12,802 nucleotides of DNA from Bacteroidota bacterium (GTDB lineage: Bacteria > Bacteroidota > Bacteroidia > Bacteroidales > JAAYUG01): NCBI GenBank assembly GCA_021812865.1, contig JAKAMP010000019.1, forward strand, positions 1 to 12,802. Reading direction: 5' to 3'. The notes under the pieces were generated by a model. It did no database searches. It saw nothing but the letters and a program-made list of their open reading frames with translations, and was not told where the DNA came from. The translations under genes and the position numbers were made by a program. Each line of letters opens with the position of its first letter. Within the stretch, counting starts at the first letter, position 1. Shown piece after piece: positions 1 through 12,802 of the stretch.

Positions 1-106
1 TTCTTTTATCTTTTTATCATATTCCTCTTTACTTAATTGTTCATTTTTAAATACATATGACTTATTTCTTAAGTTATAAGAAAAATAACAATTAAAACTT
101 AATGAG

Positions 107-379
107 ATGGAAAATATTCATGGAAATGGTGCCTCTGGGCATGAGAAAGAATTCGTAATTATTGTAAATGGTCGGGAAAGGGCGTTTATTGAAAAAGAAA
201 TTACCTTCAGACAAGTCGTTGAACTTGCTTTCGGTACTTATGAGGAGAATCCTGACATTGTTTATACAATAACCTATAGCAAAGGGGAAGACAAAAAGGA
301 GGGTACAATGACAGTTGGAACCAGTGTTAAAGTTAAAAATGGGATGATTTTCAATGTTACACGAACTAATAGAAGCTAA
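107..379 (+). CDS. Multiubiquitin-family ubiquitin-like protein (single beta-grasp domain)
   Basis: A 90-residue protein that is almost entirely one ubiquitin-like beta-grasp domain (about residues 14-86). It shows the pattern I know from the multiubiquitin family (PF14452): VNGR at 20-23, ITFRQVVELAF at 32-42, an N-x-x-Y-T-x-T-Y segment near 48-57, GTM at 66-68, and VKVKNGMIFNVT at 74-85. Longer family members carry tandem copies; this one has a single copy. It is presumably the modifier that the downstream E1-like enzyme adenylates and transfers to a target. The C-terminus is TRTNRS, with no di-glycine, which from memory is usual for this family but unlike ubiquitin, ThiS or MoaD. The ATG at 107 has no clear Shine-Dalgarno sequence, as is common in Bacteroidota. 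The 3' end overlaps the next gene by 26 bp, suggesting translational coupling. Family assignment is confident; the cellular target is unknown. Confidence 0.88.
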   Translation: MENIHGNGASGHEKEFVIIVNGRERAFIEKEITFRQVVELAFGTYEENPDIVYTITYSKGEDKKEGTMTVGTSVKVKNGMIFNVTRTNRS

Positions 380-1538
380 CCCGGATCTTAAACGACTCCA
401 AGATGAAGGGTATGCTTTTGAGGTAAAGGATTCCTTTCTTCTGATACATGAAATCCCGTATGTAAATTCAAATCGAATGATCAAATACGGAATTCTTGTA
501 TCAGACCTTTCCTCAATGGCTGGTAACAGAACAACAAGTCCAATTGGACAGCATGTGGCATATTTTATTGGTGATCATCCTTGCAACTCGGATGGTTCGA
601 TAATTTCTGCGATTAGGCTTAGTAGTCAGAATCAACAACTTTCTAAGGATATTACCGTTAATCATTCATTTTCAAATAAGCCGCAGAGTGGGTATCAGAA
701 TTACTATGAGAAAATGGTCAGTTATATTAACATTATTTCATCGCAGGCCAAGGCTATTGAAGATTCTGTGACAGAGAAACCATTCAGGACAATAGATTCT
801 GAAAATGAGGAACAAATATTTAAATACATCGATACAAATTCTGGAAAGGCAAAAATTACTGCAATTGTTTCTAAACTGAAGGAACAGAAAGTAGCAATCA
901 TTGGATTGGGTGGGACAGGCTCATATATTTTAGATTTGATTTCGAAAACTCCAGTTCAAGAAATTCACTTGTTTGATGGGGATCTATTCTTCCAGCACAA
1001 TGCTTTCAGATCACCTGGTGCAAGTTCATTGAGTGAATTGCAGGCCTTGCAGAAAAAAACTGATTATTTCCAAACCCATTATTCCAATATTAGGACAAAC
1101 ATTTACTCTCATAATTATTACTTAGACAATCAGAATATTGAAGAATTATTAGCAATTAATTTTGTTTTTATCTGTATTGATAAGTCTGATATAAAAAAGG
1201 TCATTATAGAAAGACTGGTTGCACACAATATTTCTTTTATCGATACCGGAATAGGGGTACTTAACATTGAAAATTCATTAATTGGTCATATTAGAGTGAC
1301 AACAAGTACACCAGAAATGCGTGAGCATATAAAAACCAGAATTACTTCCTGTGACGATGGGGGAGAAAACGACTATTCTACAAATATTCAAATCGCAGAG
1401 TTAAACGCTTTAAATGCTGCATTAGCAGTAATAAAGTGGAAAAAACTATCTGGTTTTTACCAGGATCAGAACAAGGAATTCAATTCAGTTTATTCAATAA
1501 ATGATGGAGTTTTAATTAATGAAGACAATCTCATTTGA
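354..1538 (+). CDS. ThiF/E1-family adenylyltransferase with N-terminal DUF6791 (E2-like?) domain
   Basis: A 394-residue two-part protein. Residues about 1-160 match the DUF6791 domain as I know it: IPYVN at 34-38, HVAYFIGDHPC at 67-77, HSFSNKP at 104-110, and YQNYYEKM at 114-121. Residues about 165-394 are a ThiF/E1 Rossmann adenylation domain, with the nucleotide loop GLGGTGS at 184-190, LFDGD at 206-210, NAFRSPGA at 216-223 (the Arg of the E1 N-x-x-R motif is R219), and CIDK at 274-277. It should activate the C-terminus of the upstream Ubl with ATP. C333 (in TSCDD) is the most obvious candidate for a thioester cysteine, but this is uncertain. The N-terminal region has an HP-x-N-x-D-GSI stretch resembling an E2 active-site region, so the protein may be an E2-E1 fusion (inference). 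The start overlaps the Ubl gene and the end overlaps the DUF6527 gene by 20 bp. G+C is low (about 25-35% in sampled lines). Confidence 0.9.
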   Translation: MLHELIEANPDLKRLQDEGYAFEVKDSFLLIHEIPYVNSNRMIKYGILVSDLSSMAGNRTTSPIGQHVAYFIGDHPCNSDGSIISAIRLSSQNQQLSKDITVNHSFSNKPQSGYQNYYEKMVSYINIISSQAKAIEDSVTEKPFRTIDSENEEQIFKYIDTNSGKAKITAIVSKLKEQKVAIIGLGGTGSYILDLISKTPVQEIHLFDGDLFFQHNAFRSPGASSLSELQALQKKTDYFQTHYSNIRTNIYSHNYYLDNQNIEELLAINFVFICIDKSDIKKVIIERLVAHNISFIDTGIGVLNIENSLIGHIRVTTSTPEMREHIKTRITSCDDGGENDYSTNIQIAELNALNAALAVIKWKKLSGFYQDQNKEFNSVYSINDGVLINEDNLI

Positions 1539-1890
1539 ATTTGTTGAGTTCATACCCGAACGACTCGAGGACGGAAAACTCTACATCTCCACGAAGTATT
1601 GTACAGCTGTACATAAATGCTTCTGCGGCTGTCAGGAGGAAGTGGTTACACCATTGTCTCCCGTTGATTGGGAGTTGACTTTTGACGGCAAAACAATTTC
1701 ACTTTATCCTTCTATCGGGAATTGGGGAATGAAATGCCAATCCCACTACTGGATTAGAAAGAATAAAGTTGTGTGGTCAGATAAATGGAATGATACGAAG
1801 ATTCGACTTCTACGGGAATCTGAGAAAATTCAAAAAGAAGAGTACTTTAATAGGGGAAAAAGGAAAACTAGATGGCCACGAAAGTGGTAG
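1519..1890 (+). CDS. DUF6527 family protein, putative metal-binding partner of the Ubl system
   Basis: A 123-residue protein with the recognisable DUF6527 core: H32-x-C34-x-C36-G-C38, then TPLSPVDWELTFDG at 44-57, SLYPSIGNW at 61-69, and C73-x-S75-H76-YWI. The clustered Cys and His residues look like a zinc site. The invariant-looking Ser/Asp/His residues (S47, D50, S65, S75, H76) would also be candidates for catalysis if it is a hydrolase. The family recurs beside ThiF/Ubl genes, and a role in removing or maturing the Ubl is plausible, but the sequence alone does not prove a reaction. The C-terminal tail (about 92-123) is highly charged and basic. The ATG lies inside the 3' end of the E1 gene (20-bp overlap), with GGAG at 1506-1509, 9 nt upstream, as a possible ribosome site. 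Its G+C (about 38-52% in sampled lines) is higher than that of the two upstream genes. Confidence 0.85.
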   Translation: MKTISFEFVEFIPERLEDGKLYISTKYCTAVHKCFCGCQEEVVTPLSPVDWELTFDGKTISLYPSIGNWGMKCQSHYWIRKNKVVWSDKWNDTKIRLLRESEKIQKEEYFNRGKRKTRWPRKW

Positions 1891-1993: not shown

Positions 1994-2055
1994 TTCTGAA
2001 ATTGGGGAATCTTTTACAAGCCTGGCTTAGAGTTTAATACTCCCCAAATTCAGAA
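1994..2055. repeat. Imperfect 15-bp inverted repeat, possible bidirectional terminator or island scar
   Basis: The arms TTCTGAAATTGGGGA (1994-2008) and TCCCCAAATTCAGAA (2041-2055) are reverse complements with one mismatch, separated by 32 bp. The loop contains a smaller palindrome, AAGCC-T-GGCTT (2018-2028). The repeat lies between two convergent genes, so a bidirectional transcription end is one reading. The U-tracts next to it are weak, so a mobile-element or island-boundary remnant is also possible. Confidence 0.5.
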
Positions 2056-2081
2056 CAGTTAGCTAAGTTGGAAAATAACAG

Positions 2082-2540
2082 TTACTCCCTGTCTATCTTT
2101 ACATTGATGGCATTGGGACCCTTCACTCCCTTAATGATATCGAAAGTAACCTTCGTATTCTCCTTCACCGGTTCAGTAAGGGAATTTACGTGGACGAATA
2201 TATCCTGACGCGTATTGGATTCCTTGATAAATCCAAATCCTCTCGATTCATCAAAAAACGTAACCACTCCCCTGTGTCCAGCAATATCTTCATCAGACTC
2301 CGCCCGGCGCGGAACTCCAATGACTATATCTTCGACCTTAACATCTTTCTTCTGACTTATATCCGGCGGTGTGGAAGTAATGTTCCCAAATTCATCCACA
2401 TACGCAATCATATCGTTCAGGTTATTGCCATCGCGGCTCTGGCGCTTTCTGTCCTCTTTCTTCTGTGCTTTCTCTTTTCTTTTTTTCTCTTTCTTGGCTC
2501 TTACTTCTTTTTTGCCGAAAGATTCATTTCCTCTACCCAT
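2082..2540 (-). CDS. Cold-shock-domain (CspA-like) nucleic-acid-binding protein with basic N-terminal extension
   Basis: A 152-residue protein ending in a cold-shock domain (about residues 88-150). It has RNP1 as RGFGFI at 100-105 and RNP2 as DIFVHV at 113-118, the aromatic and basic residues that bind single-stranded RNA or DNA. Residues 1-36 are very rich in Lys, Arg and Glu and probably form a charged helix. A linker with DMIAYVDEFGNITSTPPD (43-60) follows. This long architecture, rather than the 65-70-residue bacterial CspA, is common in Bacteroidota. Its likely role is RNA chaperone or translational regulator in the cytoplasm. It is convergent with the Ubl operon. No exact TAnnTTTG promoter was found upstream; TACTTTTA on the minus strand (2639-2632) is a weak candidate that would give a leader of about 85 nt. 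Confidence 0.92.
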   Translation of the reverse strand: MGRGNESFGKKEVRAKKEKKRKEKAQKKEDRKRQSRDGNNLNDMIAYVDEFGNITSTPPDISQKKDVKVEDIVIGVPRRAESDEDIAGHRGVVTFFDESRGFGFIKESNTRQDIFVHVNSLTEPVKENTKVTFDIIKGVKGPNAINVKIDRE

Positions 2541-3685
2541 TTATATTCCTTGTTTTAGTTATTTCATCGAAACAGCCTGTGATTTAGATTATCAGATAAC
2601 TGTACTGGCTCACTAACAGGCAAATTTTCTGTAAAAGTACATTAAATAACTGACATCTACCTGAATTTTCCCTGACCTGGTCCATATTCTTTACAAAGAT
2701 GACCATGAATTTGGCTTTCGTACTTTCCCCAGGCCCCTAAGCGAACCTTTTCATGAAGCTGTTCTCCGGAGTTAATTCCCCGACAACGGAATTTTCTGAA
2801 TCAACAGCAGCCGCTATTTTTGTAAATGGCCTCAAAGATCTTCAGGAAATACCTCGCATTGATCAGCTGAAAGACCCGACACAGTCTCGGCTATTAGCTT
2901 AATGAAATCTTCTCAGGTTCTTCCTTTCTTTTCAGGTGCTTTTTTTCTCTCCACATTCCTCACACAAGCTTTCGGCCATCAATCAAATTTATAGGTATTC
3001 CCGCATAAACGAACTTATCGAAGGCTGCAAAAAGGATCCGGGAGTTTTCCTAGCCCGGAACAGAATGATGGTCATCCCTGCCTTTCTCAGTCGTATTGCA
3101 TATCGAATTAAGCCGCTGCAGGTGAAAACAAAACCTTTGCCCTACCGGTAGAATTTGTTCTTTTAACCGCTTTGCCCACCCTAATACATTCTAGCTAACC
3201 TGCCTCCTGGGACCTGTCTTCCAGCCTGAAGGTATAGCAGATAAAAATCAGTAATTCAGGTATGATTTTCAGTAATTTATATTCAATCGACCATAAATAA
3301 AACCATTCGATCGAATATCCCGGGAAGCAGTGATTTTGACTGGAATATTACACTGGCCTATAATTTCAGCAGGGTTTACCGGGCATTGAAATGAGTGGCT
3401 CAATGGCTTAATGCTCTCTACGGAATGTCTTTCTTCTGTGGAACAGAAATAATTCCCCCTTTCTTCCATCTTTCTTTAATAAGGAAATGAATCGGGTATA
3501 GGTCAGTCTGTAGGGTGATGAGTATACAATCCAATTCCCATAAGAAGTTACAATGAAGAGTCGTCCCCTCTAAGGAGAATGAAAAGTCATTCACCTTCCC
3601 ATTTCGGGCATTCACCGATAATTCATTTACCAGTGTATTCCTGCCTTGTACCTTCGTTTTCATAAACCTAATCTTCATTTCGATT
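2541..3685. other. 1.1-kb stretch without a convincing gene
   Basis: Both strands were read. Open frames here are short and match no family I recognise: a 49-codon frame from ATG 2753 to TAA 2902 (+), a 71-codon frame at 2936-3151 (+), and leftward frames at 3269-3469 and 3418-3783 (the latter running into the start of the next gene). The left end must contain the cold-shock gene promoter and the right end the promoter of the DUF6263 gene. The middle may be decayed coding sequence or a former insertion site. No transposase motif, tRNA or strong hairpin was seen. Confidence 0.55.
3626..3656 (+). promoter_or_regulatory. Candidate Bacteroidetes-type promoter for the DUF6263/outer-membrane operon
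   Basis: TACCTTCG at 3649-3656 matches 7 of 8 positions of the -7 element (TAnnTTTG), counting the free positions. TTTA lies at 3626-3629, 19 bp upstream, where the -33 TTTG is expected. Transcription would begin near 3661 and give a leader of about 25 nt before the ATG at 3686. One mismatch in each box makes this tentative. Confidence 0.4.
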
Positions 3686-4633
3686 ATGAAAATTATATCT
3701 GCTTTCCTCATGACCTTATTCCTGTGCGCTGCAGCAACAGGACAACAGAAGACCGACTTAAAACTGAACCTTGAGAAAAACAAGACCTATCGCCTGCGTT
3801 CGGTCACTGAACAGACCATCATCCAGACCATAAACGGGAACCAGCAAACTATTGAATCAGGAGCAACCTATGTATTGTCTCTTAAAATGGTTGATGCAAA
3901 CCGTGCATTCATGGTGGCTGAAATTCATATCGACACCCTTGCCAGCAAGACCAATACCATGGGGAAAACCGTCGTCATGACTTCCGCATCAGCAGGCAAT
4001 GTCGAATCGAAGGAAACCTCCGACATCATGTCGTACTTCATGAACCGGATCACTCAAAACCCGGTATACGCGAAAATCGACTCCACCGGTAAGGTTATAG
4101 AACTGATTAATTCCAAAATGCTGTCGGATATGATTCTTCGCGATACTGGAAAAATAACGGTAACCGGACCTACTGCTCCCGCACTCAAAAAGCAGGTTGC
4201 TGACCTGGTGGGAAACACTTCGCTGATCAACATTATCGAAATGTTCACCCATTATCTGCCGGGCAAGGAGGTTGAGACGGGTGATAAGTGGAACATTATT
4301 ACTACAACCAATGCCGGAGGAATGTCGCTCGACATTACAAGCGCCTGTCAGTTGAATCAGGTATCCGGTGGATTGGCTGACATCAGTGTGGAATCGGCCA
4401 TTAAGGCAGCGCCGAATGCGGCGCCTATGGAAATGGGCAGCGCCAAAATAACCTATGACGACATCAGCGGATTGACCAAATCGACCCTGCACGTCAATGC
4501 TCAGACAGGTCTTATGGAAAATCTTGCTTCAAACACCCATATCACGGGGAATCTCAGTGTAAGCATGCCGGGAATGAGCATGCAGATTCCCATGGATATC
4601 ACCAGTACCGGGAAAATAAACAGAATGGAATGA
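3686..4633 (+). CDS. Secreted DUF6263 family protein
   Basis: A 315-residue exported protein. Residues 1-19 form a signal peptide (MKII, then a hydrophobic core ending AAATG before QQ). It has no lipobox, so it is probably periplasmic or on the outer membrane face. The rest is soluble and rich in beta-strands, Thr, Ser and Met, with features I associate with DUF6263: an early LKLNLEKNKTYRL segment (25-37), a middle LPGKEVETGDKW segment (about 191-202), and a C-terminal GxM-rich stretch (NLSVSMPGMSMQIPMDIT). No catalytic motif is visible and the function of the family is not known to me. It lies immediately before the outer-membrane barrel gene (a gap of 16 bp to the preferred start), is transcribed in the same direction, and probably forms an operon with it, so a joint envelope role is likely. 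Confidence 0.82.
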   Translation: MKIISAFLMTLFLCAAATGQQKTDLKLNLEKNKTYRLRSVTEQTIIQTINGNQQTIESGATYVLSLKMVDANRAFMVAEIHIDTLASKTNTMGKTVVMTSASAGNVESKETSDIMSYFMNRITQNPVYAKIDSTGKVIELINSKMLSDMILRDTGKITVTGPTAPALKKQVADLVGNTSLINIIEMFTHYLPGKEVETGDKWNIITTTNAGGMSLDITSACQLNQVSGGLADISVESAIKAAPNAAPMEMGSAKITYDDISGLTKSTLHVNAQTGLMENLASNTHITGNLSVSMPGMSMQIPMDITSTGKINRME

Positions 4634-4649
4634 CATGATCTGTACCGCT

Positions 4650-7019
4650 ATGAAGAAATTATTATTGGGATTGGCATTGCTTCTGCCTGCCGCCCTGTTT
4701 GCCCAGAATATTAAAGGAACCGTATACCTCCAAGGTGAAGGCTCGCCAGCCCAGTTTGCCGGAGTCAGCCTGTTGCGGATAACCGATTCAGTGCCCCTTA
4801 CCGGGGTGATAACCCTCTCCGACGGCGGCTATGCTTTCGAAAAAGTCAGTCCGGGAGACTACCTGGTCAAGGTGAGCTTCTTAGGCTATAATGCAGCTTA
4901 CAGAAATGCCTCCCTCAAACCGGGAGTCAAGGAAACGCTGGTAGATACCATCTTTTTAACTGCCAAAAGTTCAGATCTGCAAGAAGTTACCGTTTCAGCC
5001 GAACGACTGAAGGGAAAGGAAATGGTCGACCGGACGGTATACGCCGTGCCCTCGGCCATGGCCAAGTCATCCACCACCGGGTACGACCTGTTGAAGAAGA
5101 TTCCCCAGGTGAATGTCGATTTTCAGAACAACATTACCTTAAATGGAAGCAGCAACTTTATCATCCAGGTCGACGGCAAACAGCGCGACCGGGAATACCT
5201 GGCGAAGCTGCTGCCTTCGGAGATTGAGAGTATCGAGATCATCAGCAATCCATCCGGGAAATACGAAGGAAACATCGACGGGGTAATCAATATTATCCTG
5301 AAGAAAGAAGCCCGGTATGGAATGAGCGGAAACGCTTCCCTCTCGGTTAAACCCTTTAACAAACCTACCACATCGGCCTCAGGAAGCCTCGATTATTCCG
5401 CAGGCAAGATCACTTTTTACGTTACGGGATTTGCTTTCCTGCAGAACCTGGAGATCAGCTCGCGGAATGAGTCGCGCTTTCTTACCACCGATTCAATGAG
5501 CAGGATGACAGGCAGCGGAAAGATCAGGATATCCAATTCGTCTGTCAATAGCGGATTCGATTATTATATAAACGGGAAGAATAACCTGAGCCTTAACCTG
5601 AGCTATAAACCTATCGGGCAGGATATTCATATACCCAACCAAACTACACTTTTCAGCAACAATGTGCCTCTTAATTCAATCATGTCCACCACGGACGAAC
5701 TGACAAACAGCGATGAATATTCAGCTTCCCTTTTCTATAAAAAGACCTTCAAAAAACCCATACAGGAATTCACTGTCGAAAACACCTTCTATAAGTTTTC
5801 GTCCGACGACCGGAATGATTTTGCCAACACGCAATACCTCTATGACAGCGATACGGTGATCAGCCTGACCAAAAGGTTTGAAAACAACCTGAACAAGAGA
5901 AATTATGTGTCCACGAAAGTGGATTATGTACAGCCCATCGGCATGAATATGAAAATTGAAACCGGCTACCAGTTTTACTACCAGCACCTGACTTACGATT
6001 TCAAGATCGACGACGTGGCATCGAACAATTTATTTACATACAACGAGTTGCGGAATTCTGCGTATGGAGGATTCACCTTCAATCATAAAAAAATCGGGTT
6101 CCAGGCGCTGGTAAGGATTGAAAACAGCCAGATCAAGGCAGATTCTGTTACCGATCCGAACTACTCCTGCATTCTGCCTTCGGTAAACCTGCAATACAAG
6201 ATATCTGCATCGCAGAACCTGAAGTTTACATACAACCGTAGGATAAACCGCCCGGGTATCTATGATATGAATCCCTATTACCGAATTGATCAGAACTATC
6301 GCATTACCCAGGGGAATCCCGATCTAAAGCCCGATTACAGGGACCGTTTGCAGCTCACCTTCACCTGGAATTTCGGCAGCAATTATTTGTCGCCCTACAT
6401 TTACCATGAATTTTTCACTGGCAAGATTGGCAGACTTTACCAGATCGTTCAGTTGCCGGGATCCAGCAACTTCACCACCCTGACCAAACCCTATAACCTG
6501 CTCAACGGGTATGAATCAGGCGGAGGGTTAAACGCCATGCTCTGGTTCGTAAACATCAATGCAAGGCTGTACCGTGGCCACTATAATGCCTATACCGAGG
6601 GCTCCGTTACCATTCCTGCGGTAGATTATTTCTCGTATAACCTCACCAGCTATGCCTATGCACAGCCCGGCAAAAAGAAAAAGACCACCATCTTTGCCTT
6701 TATCTCATACAATGGCGTGGACCGGAATGCGCAGAGCAGAACCTACAATATGCCCTTCTATGGCTTCGGAGGACAGCATCAGTATAAGGACCACAGTTTC
6801 GGGATTTTCTGGCTTCTGCCCATGTCGACCAATGTGACTCTAAGCAAGACCATAACCGAAACTCCCTATTATACCTCCACAAACATTATTGGCTTCAACG
6901 TAAGCAACTACATCCAGTTCATGTATACCTACAAATTCAACAAGGGCAGGACTGTGAAAAAGATGAACCGAAGCGTTGAAGTCGAGAGCGACAGCAAAAG
7001 CCAAGCAATAGGGAAATAA
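4650..7019 (+). CDS. Outer-membrane beta-barrel family protein (TonB-receptor-like, CarboxypepD_reg + plug + barrel)
   Basis: About 789 residues. In order: a signal peptide 1-19 (MKKLLLG..., ending LFAQ), a CarboxypepD_reg-like beta-sandwich (about 20-108, with GYAFEKVSPGDYLVKVSFLGY), a TonB-receptor-type plug (about 115-220, with LLKKIPQVNVD, IIQVDGK, IESIEIISNPSGKYEG and GVINIILKK), then a large barrel of the PF14905 type (outer membrane beta-barrel family) with RRINRPG near residue 530 and GNPDLKP near 554. Such proteins sit in the outer membrane; whether this one takes up a ligand through TonB or has another envelope role cannot be told. The final residues are a charged tail rather than the usual terminal aromatic residue. 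The in-frame ATG at 4635 adds MICTA ahead of the signal peptide; the ATG at 4650 gives a normal signal sequence and is preferred. There is no SusD-like partner beside it. Confidence 0.88.
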   Translation: MKKLLLGLALLLPAALFAQNIKGTVYLQGEGSPAQFAGVSLLRITDSVPLTGVITLSDGGYAFEKVSPGDYLVKVSFLGYNAAYRNASLKPGVKETLVDTIFLTAKSSDLQEVTVSAERLKGKEMVDRTVYAVPSAMAKSSTTGYDLLKKIPQVNVDFQNNITLNGSSNFIIQVDGKQRDREYLAKLLPSEIESIEIISNPSGKYEGNIDGVINIILKKEARYGMSGNASLSVKPFNKPTTSASGSLDYSAGKITFYVTGFAFLQNLEISSRNESRFLTTDSMSRMTGSGKIRISNSSVNSGFDYYINGKNNLSLNLSYKPIGQDIHIPNQTTLFSNNVPLNSIMSTTDELTNSDEYSASLFYKKTFKKPIQEFTVENTFYKFSSDDRNDFANTQYLYDSDTVISLTKRFENNLNKRNYVSTKVDYVQPIGMNMKIETGYQFYYQHLTYDFKIDDVASNNLFTYNELRNSAYGGFTFNHKKIGFQALVRIENSQIKADSVTDPNYSCILPSVNLQYKISASQNLKFTYNRRINRPGIYDMNPYYRIDQNYRITQGNPDLKPDYRDRLQLTFTWNFGSNYLSPYIYHEFFTGKIGRLYQIVQLPGSSNFTTLTKPYNLLNGYESGGGLNAMLWFVNINARLYRGHYNAYTEGSVTIPAVDYFSYNLTSYAYAQPGKKKKTTIFAFISYNGVDRNAQSRTYNMPFYGFGGQHQYKDHSFGIFWLLPMSTNVTLSKTITETPYYTSTNIIGFNVSNYIQFMYTYKFNKGRTVKKMNRSVEVESDSKSQAIGK

Positions 7020-7220
7020 AACAAACTTTCATAAGGATTTGAAATACATACCTCGGATAAATCTGTGACATTAAGTGCATTTTTCTACGCAATTAGCCGT
7101 TTGCTTATGGCTATTGGCGGATAATTCAGAGGTGAAAACATCATCGAACTCTTGTTTCGGGTTGTGGTCAGGAAGGACTGATTTTCAGAATTATATATTT
7201 TTTCTTATAGAGATTGATAA

Positions 7221-7275
7221 AGGAAAAAGATTATAAAAAAATAACAGGTCAGGTTGAAACTGACCTGCCTGTTAT
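7221..7275 (-). terminator. Rho-independent terminator of the secreted glycosidase-like gene
   Basis: AGGTCAG (7246-7252) pairs with CTGACCT (7260-7266) around a 7-nt loop. The outer arms ATAAC (7241-7245) and GTTAT (7271-7275) extend the stem with a 4-nt bulge. On the minus strand the stem is followed by a U-rich run (complement of the A-rich 7221-7240). It begins 24 bp past the stop of the leftward gene. The same hairpin could help to end the rightward barrel operon, but there is no U-run on that side. Confidence 0.8.
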
Positions 7276-7298
7276 GCTGTAAGTAATATGCAGATTTT

Positions 7299-9701
7299 CT
7301 AATATTTCACAAACCTCCTTTGCTCGATCCAGTGGTTGCCGATGATCTGCACGAGATATACGCCCGGTGAAAGACCGGACACATCGAAGGTTTGCGTGTT
7401 GTCTCCCTTCGACAGTTGTTTGTCCATGACAATGATCCCGCTGGCGGACAGGATTTTTACACGTGTGGCTATGCTGTTCCTGTACTGCGACAGCCCGGTG
7501 ATCACCAGGGTGCCTTTTGTGGGCACAGGATAAAGCAACAATCCTGACTGCCTGGGGGTAACCACCGCCGATGTTTTGTATACGTTTACCGTTGTGGTTT
7601 TCGTCACGTTCAGGTAATTGCTGCTGTCGGTGGGCAGGAAGGTTACACTGAGCAGGATGTTGGTTCCCGTATCCAACGCGGTACCTGCCGGTGGATCGTA
7701 TACGAATGTGCCTGGAACGCTGGCCGTGGCGTCGAGCTGTACCGTGGAAAGGCTGTCGCCATAACTCATATCCGCCGGCTGACTACAACTGGCCACGGGG
7801 GTTGCCTTCTTCACTTTTATCAAAACCATTTTCGTGACCGGTGCATAGGTTGCATCAAGAGGTGTGAAAGTAACGGAGAGGGGTATGCTGTCGCCCGCAG
7901 TGAGCAAGGACCCTGACTGTGGTGAATAAGAATACGTTCCTGTCATATAGGTTGAAGCATTCAACTGGGTGGAGCTAAGTTTTGTGCCATACACGATATC
8001 GGCAGGATTGCTCCACTGCAAAGCCGGCCGGATGGTATCGTTCACCAACAGTTGGCGGCTGCCTGTATCTGCCAGAAGGTAGGTAACGGAATAGGGAGGT
8101 GCATCGACCACCAGCTCGTTGCCGGTAACCGCCGAAAATGCTTTGATACTGGCATAATTCACGGGACCTCCGGCAGGAAGAGTGGGGCCCTGGCCGTTTA
8201 TCAATACCTTTCTTGAAAATGGTCTGGTTGGATCGGCAGGCACATCGGTACCTCCTACAAGGGTATACCAGTAGCAGCGGTTTCCCACACCGGCATTTTC
8301 AATATTCACCCGTATGTATTGCTCCCTTGAACCCTTGTTTACCAGCATGGTGGCTACCTGTCCCGAACTGAATGAACTGGAATATGCCGTAATATCGGTA
8401 GTTCCTTTGAAGGTGGTATTGAGCAGGTGGTCGCCCATGAATCTCCGCATGAAATAGAGGTAATAAAAAGGTGCATGGGGCGTGAATTTGGGTACGTCGG
8501 GATCGTTGTATGCATACATTCCATGATCATCGCCATTGTTCCAGCCATTCGCCAGGTCCCAGCGCGAGGCTTCACCCAGCCCTGCCTTGATGCCTTCACC
8601 CACCACCATAGCCGAAAACATGCCGTCGATCTGCGAAACCGCCTGCTTCGAACCGACTGCGAACACGTTGTATTCTGTGAGCGCCACAGGAAGCATAGGT
8701 ACACCGGCCTGCTGCGCACAGGACTTTACATAGGATATGTAATTATTGACCAGTGGCGGACTGCTGAGTATGGTGGCGGCTGTTGAATTCTGCTGCCATG
8801 GCGTGAAATAGCTGTGGACAATATAAAAATCGAGCACGTCTCCCGCGGTTTTCATCAGGTCAATGTTCCACTTTGTATTTTCGGTGGAAGACGATTCGCA
8901 GGTTACCGCACCAATGTATATGGTGGCGCCTGTTTCCCGGGCGGCCGCTTTCATGGAGTCGACGAACACCCTGCAATGCGTGCCATACAGTTGGCCGTTG
9001 ATGTACATGGGCTGCCCGTCCTGGTTAAGAGAGGTATCGATTTTGTAGCCCGCTTCCCACGAGCCCGACACCTCGTTTCCTATTTCCCAGAATTTGGTCC
9101 TCCCCTTGTCGTAACGCACCCAGTCGGCCGCGAGATGTGCCGCCTGCGCCACCGGATTAGCGCTGGTGCCATACCGGGCATACCCGTAGTTCACGGTGAT
9201 GATGCCCGTGGAACCGGTCTGCTTCAGGATGCTGTAAAATGAATCGATATCCATGGTCCATCCCGCTTCCCAGGGATCGGGCCTCTTGCCGAACCATTGC
9301 CAGTTTGGGCCTCCGCCCAATAGGGAATCGGGCACGTCGGTAGCCGGATCGTAATGACTGCGGTTCCAGAAATACACATCGCTGATGCTTCCCCCGGGCC
9401 CTCTCAGCACCCCCATCTGGCGATCAGTCATGTATCGCATCAGGGTTTTGTTTTCCGACATGCTCGAAGTATACGGATTGGCATTATCACCAAAAACATA
9501 CTCCGGCACTTTCGATAGGGTATCTGCGCCATGTATGGTAATGGCCACGCTTGCCGGAATCAGTGGCATGATGGTGTCTGTATAGGCCGGGGCAGTGATG
9601 GTACGGGTATGCCACCCATCCAGAAAAATACCCTGCTGGGCATACAACATGATATTCAGGGTGAAGAAAAGGGGAATTAGAAACAGTGTCTTCCGGTTCA
9701 T
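7299..9701 (-). CDS. Secreted clan GH-A-like glycoside hydrolase with MBG-like repeats and T9SS type A sorting domain
   Basis: About 800 residues (numbering from the ATG at 9701). In order: a signal peptide (about 1-22, MNRKTLFLIPLFF..., ending YAQQ), a (beta/alpha)8-like region of about 60-430, a beta-rich region to about 545, two MBG-like repeats (about 557-630 and 632-707), and a Por/T9SS sorting domain (about 720-800, with LYPVPTKG, LSPGVYLVQI and RRFVKY). WEIGNEV places the acid/base glutamate at E210 and ALTEYN places the nucleophile at E343, the usual clan GH-A arrangement. The nearest feel is GH51/GH39-type arabinofuranosidase-like proteins, but the family and substrate are not certain. 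It should be exported and attached or released at the cell surface. A longer frame starts at 9764, but the promoter lies inside it, which supports 9701. There are no SusC/SusD partners next to it. Confidence 0.8.
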   Translation of the reverse strand: MNRKTLFLIPLFFTLNIMLYAQQGIFLDGWHTRTITAPAYTDTIMPLIPASVAITIHGADTLSKVPEYVFGDNANPYTSSMSENKTLMRYMTDRQMGVLRGPGGSISDVYFWNRSHYDPATDVPDSLLGGGPNWQWFGKRPDPWEAGWTMDIDSFYSILKQTGSTGIITVNYGYARYGTSANPVAQAAHLAADWVRYDKGRTKFWEIGNEVSGSWEAGYKIDTSLNQDGQPMYINGQLYGTHCRVFVDSMKAAARETGATIYIGAVTCESSSTENTKWNIDLMKTAGDVLDFYIVHSYFTPWQQNSTAATILSSPPLVNNYISYVKSCAQQAGVPMLPVALTEYNVFAVGSKQAVSQIDGMFSAMVVGEGIKAGLGEASRWDLANGWNNGDDHGMYAYNDPDVPKFTPHAPFYYLYFMRRFMGDHLLNTTFKGTTDITAYSSSFSSGQVATMLVNKGSREQYIRVNIENAGVGNRCYWYTLVGGTDVPADPTRPFSRKVLINGQGPTLPAGGPVNYASIKAFSAVTGNELVVDAPPYSVTYLLADTGSRQLLVNDTIRPALQWSNPADIVYGTKLSSTQLNASTYMTGTYSYSPQSGSLLTAGDSIPLSVTFTPLDATYAPVTKMVLIKVKKATPVASCSQPADMSYGDSLSTVQLDATASVPGTFVYDPPAGTALDTGTNILLSVTFLPTDSSNYLNVTKTTTVNVYKTSAVVTPRQSGLLLYPVPTKGTLVITGLSQYRNSIATRVKILSASGIIVMDKQLSKGDNTQTFDVSGLSPGVYLVQIIGNHWIEQRRFVKY

Positions 9702-9730
9702 TGGATCAGGATATTGGTTAAAATCAATAG

Positions 9731-9764
9731 CAAACTTATCAATTTTCTGCAGGATAAGTGTCAA
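9731..9764 (-). promoter_or_regulatory. Bacteroidetes-type promoter of the secreted glycosidase-like gene
   Basis: On the minus strand TAAGTTTG (9738-9731) matches the -7 element TAnnTTTG exactly, and TTG (9764-9762) lies 23 bp upstream as a -33-like element. Transcription would start near 9725, giving a leader of about 24 nt before the ATG at 9701. This rules against the upstream ATG at 9764, which would lie before the transcript start. Confidence 0.65.
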
Positions 9765-9942
9765 TTTTACTATTAAATAATATGATTCTATTCCCCCGGC
9801 TATGTATAAGAACTATCCTTAATGGTTCAATGAAAAATACCATCCATATCGTTTACAGCGATTCAGCCTTCAAACTTAGCCAGAAGCCTGTCGTTCAAGG
9901 TATACTAATCAAATGGCAAAGCAGACAAAAATATTAGTCATT

Positions 9943-10500
9943 TTAGTATTTCACCAGCAATACCGCCAACCCCTTTTTCAAAGGCTTTTCATCCAGTTCA
10001 TTAAACCCCGCATCCCTGGCCATGGCAATGGATTTACGAAACTCCTCGGTAGTGACATGATTCTGAGGTTCAACAAATAAAATCTTGCCTCCGGGTTTTA
10101 ACATGGCAAACATGTCCGCAAAAAGCGCTGCCTTGTCGGGTACCTCATGCACCACGGCAAAGAGCAAGGCAAAATCCAGTTTGCCCTGCAGATTAGCTGC
10201 GTGATAGTCTTTACCCACCTGCAAAGGGACAATAATGTCAGCCACTGCATACTTTGCCGCCCTCTTTCTCAGTTTGGCCAGCATTTTCTCCTGGATGTCC
10301 ACGCAGTATACCTTTCCCCCGGAACCCGTCATCCGGGCAAGGGGAATGCTGAAATAACCCATGGCACAGCCATAATCCATCACAGTCATTCCCGGGTTAA
10401 CATGCGGGGTAAGGATTTTCTGCGGATCGTGCTGCAGTTTCCTTATGGGAAGAATAAGCGTGTAACCCAACCACCAGGGGCATATACGTTCCTGTTCCAT
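9943..10500 (-). CDS. Class I SAM-dependent methyltransferase
   Basis: A 185-residue cytoplasmic protein with the Rossmann methyltransferase motifs in order: motif I VMDYGCAMGYF at 40-50 (SAM-binding glycine loop), the acidic end of strand 2 in VYCVDIQ at 64-70, motif II near DFALLFAVVHEV at 109-120, and motif III LKPGGKILFVEP at 134-145. This resembles Methyltransf_11/25-type proteins. The N-terminal CPWWLGYTLILPIRK segment is typical of a small group of such enzymes, but the substrate cannot be read from the sequence. It is a single-gene unit: 242 bp separate its stop from the preferred start of the glycosidase gene, and the kinase gene diverges on the other side. No exact promoter match was found upstream. 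Confidence 0.88.
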   Translation of the reverse strand: MEQERICPWWLGYTLILPIRKLQHDPQKILTPHVNPGMTVMDYGCAMGYFSIPLARMTGSGGKVYCVDIQEKMLAKLRKRAAKYAVADIIVPLQVGKDYHAANLQGKLDFALLFAVVHEVPDKAALFADMFAMLKPGGKILFVEPQNHVTTEEFRKSIAMARDAGFNELDEKPLKKGLAVLLVKY

Positions 10501-10721
10501 TTGTTTTAATGTTTAAGCGCAGAATTACTGCAAGTTATGAAAACTCCTGATGGCATAGACATGCATGTTCATATTTATTTTAAGGTACCCATGTCCTAAC
10601 CAGGCGAGCCAGGCGCCAAAGAAATGGTATGGTTACCCATGTATCACGTTGAAGAATCCCGGTTCTATTCCCTCTTCATTTTTTCCGCTCCGGCATCCAT
10701 TTTTGCCGTCTCACTGAGAAA

Positions 10722-10754
10722 TTGCCCTCCCGATTCTTACTTTCCGTATATTTG
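10722..10754 (+). promoter_or_regulatory. Bacteroidetes-type promoter of the LytS/LytTR pair
   Basis: TATATTTG at 10747-10754 is an exact match to TAnnTTTG, with TTG at 10722-10724, 22 bp upstream, as a -33-like element. Transcription would start near 10759-10761, leaving a leader of about 40 nt before the ATG at 10799. The in-frame GTG at 10754 is part of the promoter itself and so is unlikely to be the start codon. Confidence 0.65.
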
Positions 10755-10798
10755 TGGGTGAAAGTCAAAGTTTCTGGCCATCGGCATTCACTTCGACC

Positions 10799-11851
10799 AT
10801 GAAAAAGAGCTTAGAAAAGCATTATTTTATTATCGTTGCCCTGCTCTCCCTCGGCATTGCCCTCACCATACGATTCCCCAATATGATGGGAATCATTTTC
10901 AGGGAAGGGGGTGAATTCCGCAGGCTGGGCATGGAAGAGGCGCTGACCCATTTTGCCATTGAGTTCTTCATTACCCTTATCGTGGCCTTCCTGATGTTCA
11001 CCATGAATTTCTTCGTGCTGAAGCCTACAGGTAAACCTGGCCCGCTGAAATTCCTCCATGTCGTCCTCGCAGTGGTCCTTACCTTAGCCGCGGTTTCCAT
11101 ACTCAACCACCTGTTGTTCTCCCTGTCAAGCCTCTTCGAGGATGAACCGCTCCGGCATGGACGGCGTGGTGAATTTGCACTCACCAATTTTTTTGTTTCC
11201 GCGCTGGTAGTGGGCTGTGTGATTTTTATCCGCCTCATCTACCAGAAGCAATCCATCAGCATCGAGAACGAGGCCCTGAAACGGGAAGCCCTGCAACGGC
11301 AGTACGAATCGCTGAAAAACCAGCTCAGTCCGCATTTTCTCTTCAATTCCCTCACCGCCCTTAAAATCCTCATCGAGGATGCGCCCGATAAAGCCCAGCA
11401 TTATGTGAGCAGTCTCTCGAGGGCCCTGCGCTACACCCTTCAAAGCCACCAAAAACAACTGGTGAGCCTGAAGGAAGAAATGGATTTCATGGAATCCTAC
11501 CTGTACCTCATCCGCATGCGATTTGATACCAACCTGGAAGTGAGCAGTTCTATCACCGATGACCTGCTCATATGCCTGATCCCTCCCCTTACCATTCAAA
11601 CGCTTGTAGAGAACGCCATCAAGCATAACGAGATCAGCAAAAGGAATCCCCTGCGTATCGATATCCTCACCCCGGACAACCAAACCCTCCGGGTAGTAAA
11701 TCCTGTGCAAGTGAGATTGACACAGGAGGAAGGTACAGGCATAGGGCTGACCAACCTGTCCAAACAGTTTCTGTTGCTGATCGGGAAGGATATTTCCATA
11801 AGGCAGGAAAACAATCATTTTATTGTGGATGTTCCCCTTATCAAACCCTGA
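10799..11851 (+). CDS. LytS/YehU-type sensor histidine kinase
   Basis: About 350 residues (numbering from the ATG at 10799). Four membrane segments are visible at about 9-25, 52-74, 85-109 and 128-148; between the first two is a short loop rich in charge and glycine. A coiled linker (about 150-172) follows. The His_kinase (PF06580) domain begins at LKNQLSPHFLFNSL, with H179 as the phosphoacceptor. The ATP-binding part has LVENAIKHN (269-277, N box) and GTGIGL (312-317, G box). This is the usual Bacteroidota kinase that pairs with a LytTR regulator. No extracytoplasmic sensor domain is present, so the signal is probably sensed in or near the membrane. The response regulator follows after 3 bp, in the same operon. 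An upstream GTG in frame at 10754 overlaps the promoter and was not used. Confidence 0.92.
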   Translation: MKKSLEKHYFIIVALLSLGIALTIRFPNMMGIIFREGGEFRRLGMEEALTHFAIEFFITLIVAFLMFTMNFFVLKPTGKPGPLKFLHVVLAVVLTLAAVSILNHLLFSLSSLFEDEPLRHGRRGEFALTNFFVSALVVGCVIFIRLIYQKQSISIENEALKREALQRQYESLKNQLSPHFLFNSLTALKILIEDAPDKAQHYVSSLSRALRYTLQSHQKQLVSLKEEMDFMESYLYLIRMRFDTNLEVSSSITDDLLICLIPPLTIQTLVENAIKHNEISKRNPLRIDILTPDNQTLRVVNPVQVRLTQEEGTGIGLTNLSKQFLLLIGKDISIRQENNHFIVDVPLIKP

Positions 11852-11854
11852 ATC

Positions 11855-12610
11855 ATGAAGGCGCTGATCATTGAAGACGAAATCCCTGCTGCACGGCACC
11901 TGCAGCATGTTCTCGATAAGGTCGGTAATATCACGGTGCTTGACATTCTCGACTCCATAGCCGAAACCGTTGAATGGTTTGAGGTCAATCCCCTGCCCGA
12001 CCTGGTGTTCATGGATATTCATTTGGCCGATGGCCTTGCTTTTGAGATATTCAGCCGTGCCACCATCAGTTGTCCTATCATCTTTACCACCGCATACGAC
12101 GAATATGCCCTGAAAGCCTTCAAGGTGAACAGCATTGACTACCTGCTCAAACCGGTTGAGGTGGCGGATGTGCAGGAAGCCCTGAACAAGCTGAAAAGAC
12201 TCTCGGCGCCGGCAGACATGAAAGATGCCCTGGCCGGCCTCATCCGTACCTTCGGGCAGCAAAACGTGTACAAAACACACTTCTTAATTCCTGCAAAAGG
12301 GGACAAACTCATACCTGTACAGATAAATGACCTGGCTTGTATATACATCCATACAGGAACCTTGAAAGCCCTTACTTTCGACGGGAAATCCTATTTTCTG
12401 GATTATACCCTCGATGAGCTTACCGGCATGCTGAACCCGGATACCTTCTTCCGGGCCAACCGGCAATATATAGTTGCCAGGAATGCCATACAGGATATCG
12501 ATATCTGGTTCAACAACCGGCTTTCAGTAAACCTTAAGGTTCCTGTTCCTGAGAAGATCATCATCAGCAAAGCCCGGATAGGGGAGTTCAAGCGTTGGTT
12601 CGGCGCATGA
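11855..12610 (+). CDS. LytTR-family response regulator
   Basis: A 251-residue transcription factor. The receiver domain (about 1-118) has the acidic pair E7/D8, the phosphoacceptor D54 in VFMDIHL, T78/T79 in FTTAYDEYAL, and K99 in LLKPVE. The LytTR DNA-binding domain (about 140-248) has the family's FFRANRQYIVARNAI stretch at 198-212 and a C-terminal VPEKIIISKARIGEFKRWF. It is partner to the kinase 3 bp upstream. LytTR regulators usually bind direct repeats in target promoters and often act on nearby genes; the target here is not evident. Confidence 0.94.
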   Translation: MKALIIEDEIPAARHLQHVLDKVGNITVLDILDSIAETVEWFEVNPLPDLVFMDIHLADGLAFEIFSRATISCPIIFTTAYDEYALKAFKVNSIDYLLKPVEVADVQEALNKLKRLSAPADMKDALAGLIRTFGQQNVYKTHFLIPAKGDKLIPVQINDLACIYIHTGTLKALTFDGKSYFLDYTLDELTGMLNPDTFFRANRQYIVARNAIQDIDIWFNNRLSVNLKVPVPEKIIISKARIGEFKRWFGA

Positions 12611-12747
12611 TCCTTCTCCGGTCACTGAGTCTCGTATTCTGCCTGCCTCATCGTACAACAGAATCACACGAACGTTAGAGTAATTCTGCCTTAGAAAAAA
12701 TCAGGTTTTGCCCTGAAATATTCCCTTGATCAGCATGCCATAAAGTA

Positions 12748-12779
12748 AAAGCCTCCCCCAATGAACAGGGAAAGGCTTT
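12748..12779. terminator. Hairpin, possible terminator
   Basis: AAAGCCT (12748-12754) pairs with AGGCTTT (12773-12779), and inner CCC/GGG can extend the stem around an AATGAACA loop. It lies 138 bp past the response regulator stop. The T-rich side is on the minus strand (complement of TAAAGTAAAA), so it may end a leftward gene beyond the window, or both units. Confidence 0.55.
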
Positions 12780-12802
12780 CAAATACAATGTCCTGCAGGA
12801 TT

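What the first reader, a model, noticed from the sequence alone, without database searches (positions are those of the whole stretch)
107..1890. Compact ubiquitin-like conjugation operon: Ubl, E1-type enzyme and DUF6527 in three overlapping genes
Three genes overlap by 26 and 20 bp and encode a multiubiquitin-family Ubl, a ThiF/E1 with DUF6791, and DUF6527. The families and their association are known from comparative genomics of bacterial ubiquitin-like systems, and related bacterial ubiquitination-like operons have been tied to phage defence. This is a minimal version with one Ubl domain, no separate E2 gene and no JAB peptidase gene in view. The target of conjugation and the trigger are unknown.
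Basis: partly seen in the sequence, partly recalled or inferred. Interest (0 to 1): 0.85.

Follow-up and report, generated by a model that had tools for sequence, protein, structure and literature searches.

The report
Three-gene bacterial ubiquitin-like tagging operon
A compact three-gene bacterial operon carries a ubiquitin-like tag that ends in serine instead of glycine, an activating enzyme that may have a ubiquitin-transfer (E2) domain built in, and a zinc protein; it looks like a stripped-down cousin of a recently described bacterial ubiquitination pathway and has no visible tag-removing enzyme.

Summary
In detail: three overlapping + strand genes (26 and 20 bp) match Multi_ubiq, DUF6791+ThiF and DUF6527. 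The operon kind is not new: Iyer et al. 2006 described polyUbl operons whose E1 carries an unknown domain in place of JAB. The tools add: (1) The three genes stay together in 41 fetched locus entries (40 distinct places), archaea to actinomycetes; in one the DUF6527 is interrupted. (2) The sister is the Bub pathway (Ubl, E2, JAB-E1, often DUF6527). E2 and JAB turn up in 1 of 41 DUF6791 entries, as a separate operon; DUF6791 in 0 of 16 Bub loci. (3) DUF6791 gives a weak profile-profile match to the Bub E2, so the 'missing' E2 may be fused to the E1; plain HMMER does not see it. (4) The Ubl ends in Ser in 41 of 41 loci, while Bub Ubls have Gly at or near the tail in 16 of 16; the gene overlap does not force this. 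(5) The E1 has no invariant cysteine; a loop Tyr is conserved and aligns with the Bub E1 Tyr mutated in a solved complex. Best reading: an oxyester-type E2-E1 fusion attaching a Ser-ended Ubl, probably DNA-damage-controlled. No activity or phage effect is shown.

The parts
107..379 (+). Ubiquitin-like protein (90 aa, one Multi_ubiq domain, residues 16-87)
   Evidence: PF14452 3.5e-17; nearest solved chain 9cd2 'ZDHYS365 multi-ubiquitin domain protein', 3.1e-08, 1.7e-21 with the family profile
374..376 (+). Codon of the C-terminal Ser of the Ubl (AGC, directly before the stop TAA 377-379)
   Evidence: Ser at this place in 41 of 41 loci including the window
354..379 (+). 26 bp overlap of Ubl 3' end and E1 5' end
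   Evidence: 26 bp in 29 of 31 loci (the other two 11 and 29 by the ORF start used)
354..1538 (+). E1-like protein, 394 aa, PRK06153/NF004805 family
   Evidence: NF004805 7.6e-167; AF2 model mean pLDDT 88.8, pTM 0.81
381..836 (+). DUF6791 domain, proposed fused E2-like (UBC-type) domain; invariant P35 H67 P76 S107 K120 Y124
   Evidence: PF20590 6.6e-56; secondary structure helix, four strands, hairpin, helix; hhalign to Bub E2 E 2.8e-4, probability 41%; not seen by HMMER; residue counts in 127 E1s
870..1253 (+). ThiF-type adenylation domain (residues 173-300 matched)
1374..1376 (+). Codon of Tyr341 in the flexible crossover loop, proposed acceptor of the activated Ubl
   Evidence: Tyr in 126 of 126 E1s with a residue there; aligned by hhalign with the conserved Tyr of Bub E1s
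1519..1890 (+). DUF6527 zinc protein, 123 aa; putative zinc ligands C34 C38 C73 H76; basic aromatic C-terminal tail
   Evidence: PF20137 3.1e-24; A3 invariants; found in 27 of 27 locus entries first checked and 41 of 41 later; tail statistics
1519..1538 (+). 20 bp overlap of E1 3' end and DUF6527 5' end

Best explanation
A self-contained ubiquitin-like conjugation module, sister to the Bub pathway. The ThiF domain adenylates the C-terminal serine of the Ubl. The activated Ubl passes to Tyr341 of the E1 crossover loop as an oxyester, not to a cysteine, and then to an acceptor with the help of the N-terminal DUF6791 domain, a diverged Bub-type E2 fused to the E1. DUF6527, the zinc protein shared with Bub operons, is the targeting or acceptor subunit, perhaps held at a surface (membrane or nucleic acid) by its basic, tryptophan-rich tail. 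Without a JAB the Ubl needs no trimming, so its mature end is encoded directly, and no partner enzyme removes the tag. Transcription is likely induced by DNA damage, through HTH/ImmA-IrrE or WYL regulators upstream. Shown by sequence: the genes, their steady partnership, the Ser end, the lack of an invariant Cys, the near-exclusion of E2 and JAB, the regulators in relatives. Inferred: E2 identity of DUF6791, Tyr oxyester chemistry, the role of DUF6527, induction, irreversibility.
For: E1 and DUF6527 in 41 of 41 entries, Ubl in 40 of 41 by profile and the last by eye. The ThiF parts of this E1 family and of 16 Bub E1s align with hhalign probability 99.4%, E 6.9e-22, and the aligner sets Tyr341 on the conserved Bub Tyr (15 of 16). 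The deposited ternary complex is titled BubCD(D104A/Y370F)-BubB-BubA(155-229), and Y370 falls in the same loop (a numbering offset of 2 is inferred from the JAB motif). E2 and JAB profiles hit 1 of 41 DUF6791 entries (L004, a separate neighbouring operon); the DUF6791 profile hits 0 of 16 Bub loci. Bub E2 profile against DUF6791 profile: E 2.8e-4, score 29.6; 0 of 200 column-shuffled profiles reach it (best 20.2); controls JAB, ThiF, DUF6527 and Ubl give E 0.1 or worse. C-terminal Ser 41 of 41; Bub Ubls have Gly at or near the tail in 16 of 16 by eye. No Cys is invariant in 127 E1s; the best column, C77, has 118. HTH/ImmA-IrrE or WYL regulators upstream in 13 of 28 loci. Operon G+C 36% against 47% for 2000-12802; patchy spread (2 of 99 relatives and 14 of 395 phylum genomes, the window's own genome counted in both); 114 plasmid records.
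Against: hhalign gives the E2 match only 41% probability (8.9 to 10.5% in the other direction), with confident columns over about 73 positions. HMMER finds nothing: the E2 profile against the 127 E1s has best E 1.1, the DUF6791 profile against the 32 E2s best E 0.13, filters off. S107 of DUF6791 is not placed on the Ser of the Bub E2 'WSRH' motif but two columns off. In the other shuffle control the margin was thin (24.0 against a best of 23.5 in 100). The DUF6791 part could not be folded or searched alone, so its fold was not tested against solved E2s (one search covers 151-394 only). C77 is present in 118 of 127 and could be a catalytic Cys lost in a few. In 5 of 41 loci (L010, L077-L080) the tail has Gly two residues before the end, and two Bub Ubls (L060, L064) also end in Ser after a short extension, so the Ser/Gly contrast is not perfectly clean. 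That Bub works through oxyesters is recalled from an abstract of a paper not held here. DUF6527 has no structural match; its tail is amphipathic by test in 11 of 39, not in the window's copy. No function has been measured.
Confidence: 0.45

Rival explanations
1. DUF6791 is not an E2 but a substitute for the JAB peptidase (a deconjugase or regulator), as Iyer et al. 2006 speculated for the unnamed N-terminal domain ('domain X'); the E1 transfers the Ubl directly to targets or to DUF6527.
For: It sits where JAB sits, N-terminal to the E1, and has H67, S107, K120 and Y124 in 127 of 127 proteins, which could be a hydrolase site; Iyer's suggestion read. HMMER does not link it to the E2.
Against: No JAB-like profile similarity (E 0.2 or worse); the Bub E2 profile match is reached by 0 of 200 shuffles; a JAB replacement alone would leave the loss of the E2 gene unexplained; a Ubl whose encoded end is already its last residue needs no trimming.
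Confidence: 0.25
2. The E1 works like MccB: it adenylates the Ubl C-terminus and leaves a nucleotide-linked or otherwise altered Ubl, not a protein conjugate.
For: MccB, an E1-like enzyme that adenylates a peptide ending in Asn (recalled), is among the nearest solved relatives by sequence (6e-05) and fold; the Ubl ends in a non-Gly residue in 41 of 41.
Against: Nearest relative by sequence and structure is BubCD, not MccB; DUF6527 and the loop Tyr are shared with Bub.
Confidence: 0.1
3. A metabolic sulfur-carrier pair of the ThiS/ThiF or MoaD/MoeB sort.
For: Same E1 superfamily; weak NCBIfam hits to ThiF and MoeB models.
Against: Those hits are far below cut-off; no Gly-Gly end; defence-type regulators upstream in part of the relatives; patchy spread, also on plasmids.
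Confidence: 0.03
4. The C-terminal Ser is only a by-product of the overlap with the E1 start.
For: Overlap of exactly 26 bp in 29 of 31 loci.
Against: With the E1 protein held fixed, Ser has a chance of 0.25 to 0.5 per locus; product over 16 distinct E1 tripeptides 5e-7, if they were independent, which relatives are not. L003 with an 11 bp overlap by the ORF start used still ends in Ser.
Confidence: 0.04

Closest known systems
Bub (bacterial ubiquitination-like) operons, e.g. Citrobacter BubCD (PDB 9ea4, 9ea5, 9ea8, 9eae, 9eav)
   Same: Multiubiquitin-family Ubl, E1 of the same branch with a crossover-loop Tyr, DUF6527 in 10 of 12 fetched plasmid operons, HTH/ImmA-IrrE regulators upstream of several
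   Different: Window kind has DUF6791 fused in place of JAB, no E2 gene, and a Ubl encoded with Ser as its last residue; Bub Ubls have Gly at or near the tail
Iyer, Burroughs and Aravind 2006 operon type 6e (polyUbl), subset with E1 'domain X' and metal-binding protein Y
   Same: One to three Ubl repeats, E1 with an N-terminal domain in place of JAB, a small putative zinc protein
   Different: They list an inactive E2/RWD gene and the motif C-x3-C-x35-38-H-x2-C; the window kind has no E2 gene and reads C-x3-C-x34-C-x2-H; domain X was not assigned a fold there
CBASS type II Cap2 (E2-E1 fusion)
   Same: If DUF6791 is an E2, the same E2-then-E1 order in one chain
   Different: Cap2 acts on a CD-NTase, not a Ubl (PMC12355090 passages), and uses cysteines (recalled); here the partner is a beta-grasp Ubl and no Cys is invariant
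Bil (BilABCD)
   Same: Bacterial Ubl and E1
   Different: Bil has a JAB, a separate E2 with a catalytic Cys and an E1 Cys domain (PMC11354881 passages); none was found here
PDB 9cd2 ZDHYS365 multi-ubiquitin protein
   Same: Closest solved Ubl; the chain ends ...VTQTDKS
   Different: 222 aa chain of which only the last part matches well, against one domain in the window

Membership tests
Bub operon | Multiubiquitin-family Ubl (BubA) | tested here: met
   PF14452 3.5e-17
Bub operon | E1 of the BubCD branch | tested here: met
   hhalign 99.4%, E 6.9e-22 to 16 Bub E1s; BubCD first in Foldseek and VIA lists
Bub operon | JAB peptidase fused to the E1 | tested here: not met
   the residues before ThiF are DUF6791; JAB profile in 1 of 41 DUF6791 entries, in a separate operon
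Bub operon | E2 gene of the PF14462 kind | tested here: not met
   1 of 41, same separate operon; 0 in own genome
Bub operon | E2 function present in some form | tested here: inconclusive
   DUF6791 to E2 by hhalign E 2.8e-4, probability 41%, 0 of 200 shuffles; HMMER best E 0.13 and 1.1
Bub operon | DUF6527 gene | tested here: met
   PF20137 3.1e-24 in the window and 1e-22, 1.8e-19, 1.6e-21 in the three Bub copies tried; annotated in 10 of 12 Bub plasmid loci; the window-type profile finds it in 8 of 16
Bub operon | Gly at the mature Ubl end | tested here: not met
   encoded last residue is Ser in 41 of 41; Bub has Gly at or near the tail in 16 of 16 by eye
Iyer 2006 type 6e, domain X subset | One to three Ubl repeats beside an E1 without rhodanese and with a non-JAB N-terminal domain | tested here: met
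   definition read
Iyer 2006 type 6e, domain X subset | N-terminal domain is the same as 'domain X' | not testable with these tools
   the figure alignment is not held; position and description fit
Iyer 2006 type 6e, domain X subset | Protein Y motif C-x3-C-x35-38-H-x2-C | tested here: inconclusive
   window has C34-x3-C38-x34-C73-x2-H76
CBASS Cap2 | CD-NTase partner gene | not tested
   not scanned for in the flanks
Bil | E1 and E2 with catalytic cysteines | tested here: inconclusive
   no invariant Cys in 127 E1s, but C77 in 118; no Bil profile was run beyond PADLOC
ThiS/MoaD sulfur carriers | Gly-Gly C-terminus | tested here: not met

The most novel reading that the evidence does not exclude
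A whole class of Ubl conjugation, spread over archaea and several bacterial phyla, that runs without any catalytic cysteine and without Gly at the Ubl end. A Ser-ended Ubl is adenylated, held as an oxyester on a Tyr of the E1 crossover loop, and passed on by an E2-like domain fused to the same chain, with no deconjugating enzyme, so that tagging is one-way. This would be a second solution to Ubl activation in which the mature end is encoded directly, and would show how the E2 and JAB genes were lost or fused together.
Probability: 0.3. Interest if true: 0.8.

Novelty: new variant of a known kind. Interest (0 to 1): 0.58.

Why it matters
Ubls with known E1s end in Gly (recalled), which is thought necessary to thread the tail into the E1 active site. 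A large natural family whose Ubl always ends in Ser in the loci seen, with an E1 that has no invariant cysteine, makes the minimum chemistry of ubiquitin-like transfer testable with two purified proteins. It also places DUF6791 and DUF6527, two families of unknown function, in one pathway, and suggests that E2 and E1 fused at least once outside CBASS. If tagging is one-way, the operon would be a simple model for Ubl effects without a deconjugase.

Tried and rejected

Phage carriage: no match in 50,697 phage records, none confirmed in viral contigs at close-relative sensitivity. Literature: searches for DUF6527 and for DUF6791, PRK06153, NF004805, 'Multi_ubiq domain', 'multiubiquitin domain-containing' found 0 held papers. 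Papers most likely to discuss this class, Ye et al. 2026, Gong et al. 2025 and Chambers et al. 2024, are not held, so prior description there is not excluded.

Rows dropped and limits of the counts: of 14 HMM hits, L055 (a 1130 aa UvrD-helicase protein), L011 up2 and L006 up3 (no HExxH) were not counted as regulators. In one search, L003 and L051 are the same place, so 41 entries are 40 distinct loci, the window not among them; flanks differ (some only 1 to 2.5 kb), so a distant E2 or JAB gene could be missed. The 16 Bub loci were chosen because they hold a PF14462-type E2, and the E2 and JAB profiles were built from them, so their 16 of 16 is by construction; as a check, 14 of the 16 show the JAMM motif and PF14464 is matched in 5 of 7 tried, over its cut-off in 3. 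L008, whose Ubl is identical to that of L009, was left out. L079's E1 as annotated is cut short, hence 126 and not 127 at Tyr341. Of 58 downstream proteins listed, 57 were scanned, with PADLOC only; upstream ones with Pfam and PADLOC.
Full report
WHAT IS THERE. Three + strand ORFs overlap by 26 and 20 bp at 107-379, 354-1538 and 1519-1890. They match PF14452 Multi_ubiq, PF20590 DUF6791 plus PF00899 ThiF, and PF20137 DUF6527, all above curated cut-offs. The E1 falls in NCBIfam NF004805 (PRK06153.1-4, 'hypothetical protein') at 7.6e-167. PADLOC has only E1-E2 hits to the ThiF part (best 1.3e-09) and none for the other two. The window is a complete contig, so the region left of base 1 is unknown. 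The E1 is common: all of the 8000 candidates scored were relatives, and only the best 8000 were scored.

A STEADY THREE-GENE UNIT. In the first set a DUF6527 ORF is found in 27 of 27 locus entries (L001 and L002 are both the window), and a Ubl ORF precedes the E1 in 26 of 26 (L002 left out). With flanks fetched, Ubl, E1 and DUF6527 are there in 29 of 29 loci. In the widest set E1 and DUF6527 are found in 41 of 41 entries (40 distinct places) and the Ubl in 40; the missing one is L073, where the Ubl is unannotated but readable. In L076 the DUF6527 frame is interrupted beside an IS256 gene. Ubl proteins run from 76 to 313 aa. In L021 and L025 the DUF6791 and ThiF parts are separate overlapping ORFs, so DUF6791 can stand as a module of its own.

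IS DUF6791 A HIDDEN E2? The AF2 model of the whole E1 is good (mean pLDDT 88.8, pTM 0.81), and the N-terminal part runs helix, four strands, a hairpin, long helix, which is compatible with a UBC fold. A profile of 32 Bub-type E2s against 127 DUF6791 domains gives E 2.8e-4, score 29.6, probability 41%; the reverse gives E 0.0037, probability 8.9%. Controls with JAB, ThiF, DUF6527 and Ubl profiles give E 0.1 or worse. None of 200 column shuffles of DUF6791 reaches the score (best 20.2); in the other direction none of 100 shuffles of the E2 reaches 24.0, but the best is 23.5. Against it, HMMER with filters off sees nothing: best E 1.1 for the E2 profile on 127 E1s, best E 0.13 for the DUF6791 profile on 32 E2s. 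I take this as suggestive, not proof: the confident part ends near residue 87, and the domain could not be folded alone.

NO INVARIANT CYSTEINE, AN INVARIANT TYROSINE. In 127 E1s the best Cys column is C77 with 118; the next, C274, has 99. P35, H67, P76, S107, K120, Y124, G186, D210 and K235 are in 127 of 127; D208 in 126; N216 in 124. Tyr341 is in 126 of 126 with a residue there. It lies in the least certain stretch of the model (334-343), the crossover loop, where non-canonical eukaryotic E1s hold their catalytic Cys (recalled for the exact site; that the Cys is embedded in the adenylation domain is in PMC11354881 passages). hhalign set this Tyr on the conserved loop Tyr of Bub E1s, present in 15 of 16. 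The solved complex is titled BubCD(D104A/Y370F)-BubB-BubA(155-229); by my numbering Y370 is that Tyr. That Bub uses oxyester intermediates and has no catalytic cysteine is my recollection of the abstract of Ye et al. (not held).

A UBL THAT ENDS IN SERINE. All 41 Ubls of this kind, window included, end in Ser right before the stop (31, 10). Bub Ubls have Gly at or near the tail in 16 of 16: 6 end in it, 4 have 2 to 8 more residues, 6 run on into the E2 (by eye). So where JAB exists there is often something to trim, and where it does not the end is encoded as is. Two facts blur this: two of those Bub Ubls (L060, L064) end in Ser after the extension, and 5 of the 41 (L010, L077-L080) have Gly two residues before the Ser. 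Ser is not dictated by the overlap: with E1 residues fixed it has a chance of 0.25 to 0.5 in each of the 29 loci with a 26 bp overlap. Relatedness inflates the joint figure (5e-7 over 16 distinct E1 tripeptides). The closest solved Ubl chain, 9cd2, also ends in Ser.

SETTING. Of 55 proteins upstream of the triad in 28 loci, 9 match Peptidase_M78 and 2 match WYL; 10 match a PADLOC RmrA model, 9 capP and 7 capH. By locus, 11 have an HTH/M78-like protein with HExxH within three genes and 2 have WYL, 13 of 28; 15 of 28 have neither. Four of the ten later plasmid loci carry ImmA/IrrE or WYL by annotation. Such regulators answer DNA damage at CBASS and Bub operons (PMC13373217 passages). Downstream proteins include defence-type hits, each family in at most 2 of 57; Pfam was not run on them. 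The family is patchy (2 of 99 and 14 of 395 genomes, own genome included), on 114 of 72,556 plasmid records and in no phage record. The operon's G+C is 36%, against 47% for 2000-12802, which fits arrival from elsewhere.

DUF6527. Invariant H32, C34, C36, C38, C73 and H76 in 40 copies. The Bub copy in L059 keeps CxxxC with Ser in the middle, so C34, C38, C73 and H76 are the likely zinc site. The model is a beta-rich domain with a C-terminal helix (pLDDT 84.4, pTM 0.67) with no match of note in the PDB library. The last 22 residues of 39 copies carry a mean charge of +4.7 and 1.03 Trp, against +1.0 and 0.28 in neighbour proteins, and are amphipathic by a shuffle test in 11 of 39, against 10 of 156. 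The window's own tail is basic and aromatic but not significant (p 0.28).

VERDICT. Known kind (Iyer et al. 2006; section 14 read whole, table row 6e as a passage), new variant: a JAB-less, E2-gene-less sister of Bub with a Ser-ended Ubl. The mechanism is inferred; no experiment was run and none on this class was found in the held papers searched.

Noticed in passing
window 1-106: Very AT-rich end (18% G+C) with a minus-strand reading frame that stays open to the contig edge by eye; may be the edge of a neighbouring gene or remnant.
   Followed up: no
L004 11571-13366: In an archaeal contig a JAB-E1 gene and an E2 gene of the Bub kind lie on the opposite strand beside the DUF6791 triad, so both kinds coexist.
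   Followed up: partly
L021 1474-2674, L025 762-1947: DUF6791 and ThiF parts are encoded by separate overlapping ORFs.
   Followed up: partly
L076, 3' of the E1 (about 3670-3800): On a Methylomonas plasmid the DUF6527 frame breaks off next to an IS256 transposase gene.
   Followed up: no
window 1519-1890 and relatives: Basic, Trp-rich C-terminal tail of DUF6527 in this kind; Bub-type copies often start with a hydrophobic or aromatic N-terminal stretch instead (by eye).
   Followed up: partly
window 2082-12610: Ordinary-looking genes downstream: cold-shock domain protein, DUF6263, outer-membrane beta-barrel, secreted protein with a Por tail, methyltransferase, histidine kinase and LytTR regulator.
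   Followed up: no
L037, L039, L045 upstream; L028, L031: Sigma-70-like matches (two of three below the Pfam cut-off or only partly) upstream of some DUF6791 loci and similar-looking ORFs upstream of Bub loci (by eye), perhaps another control mode.
   Followed up: no
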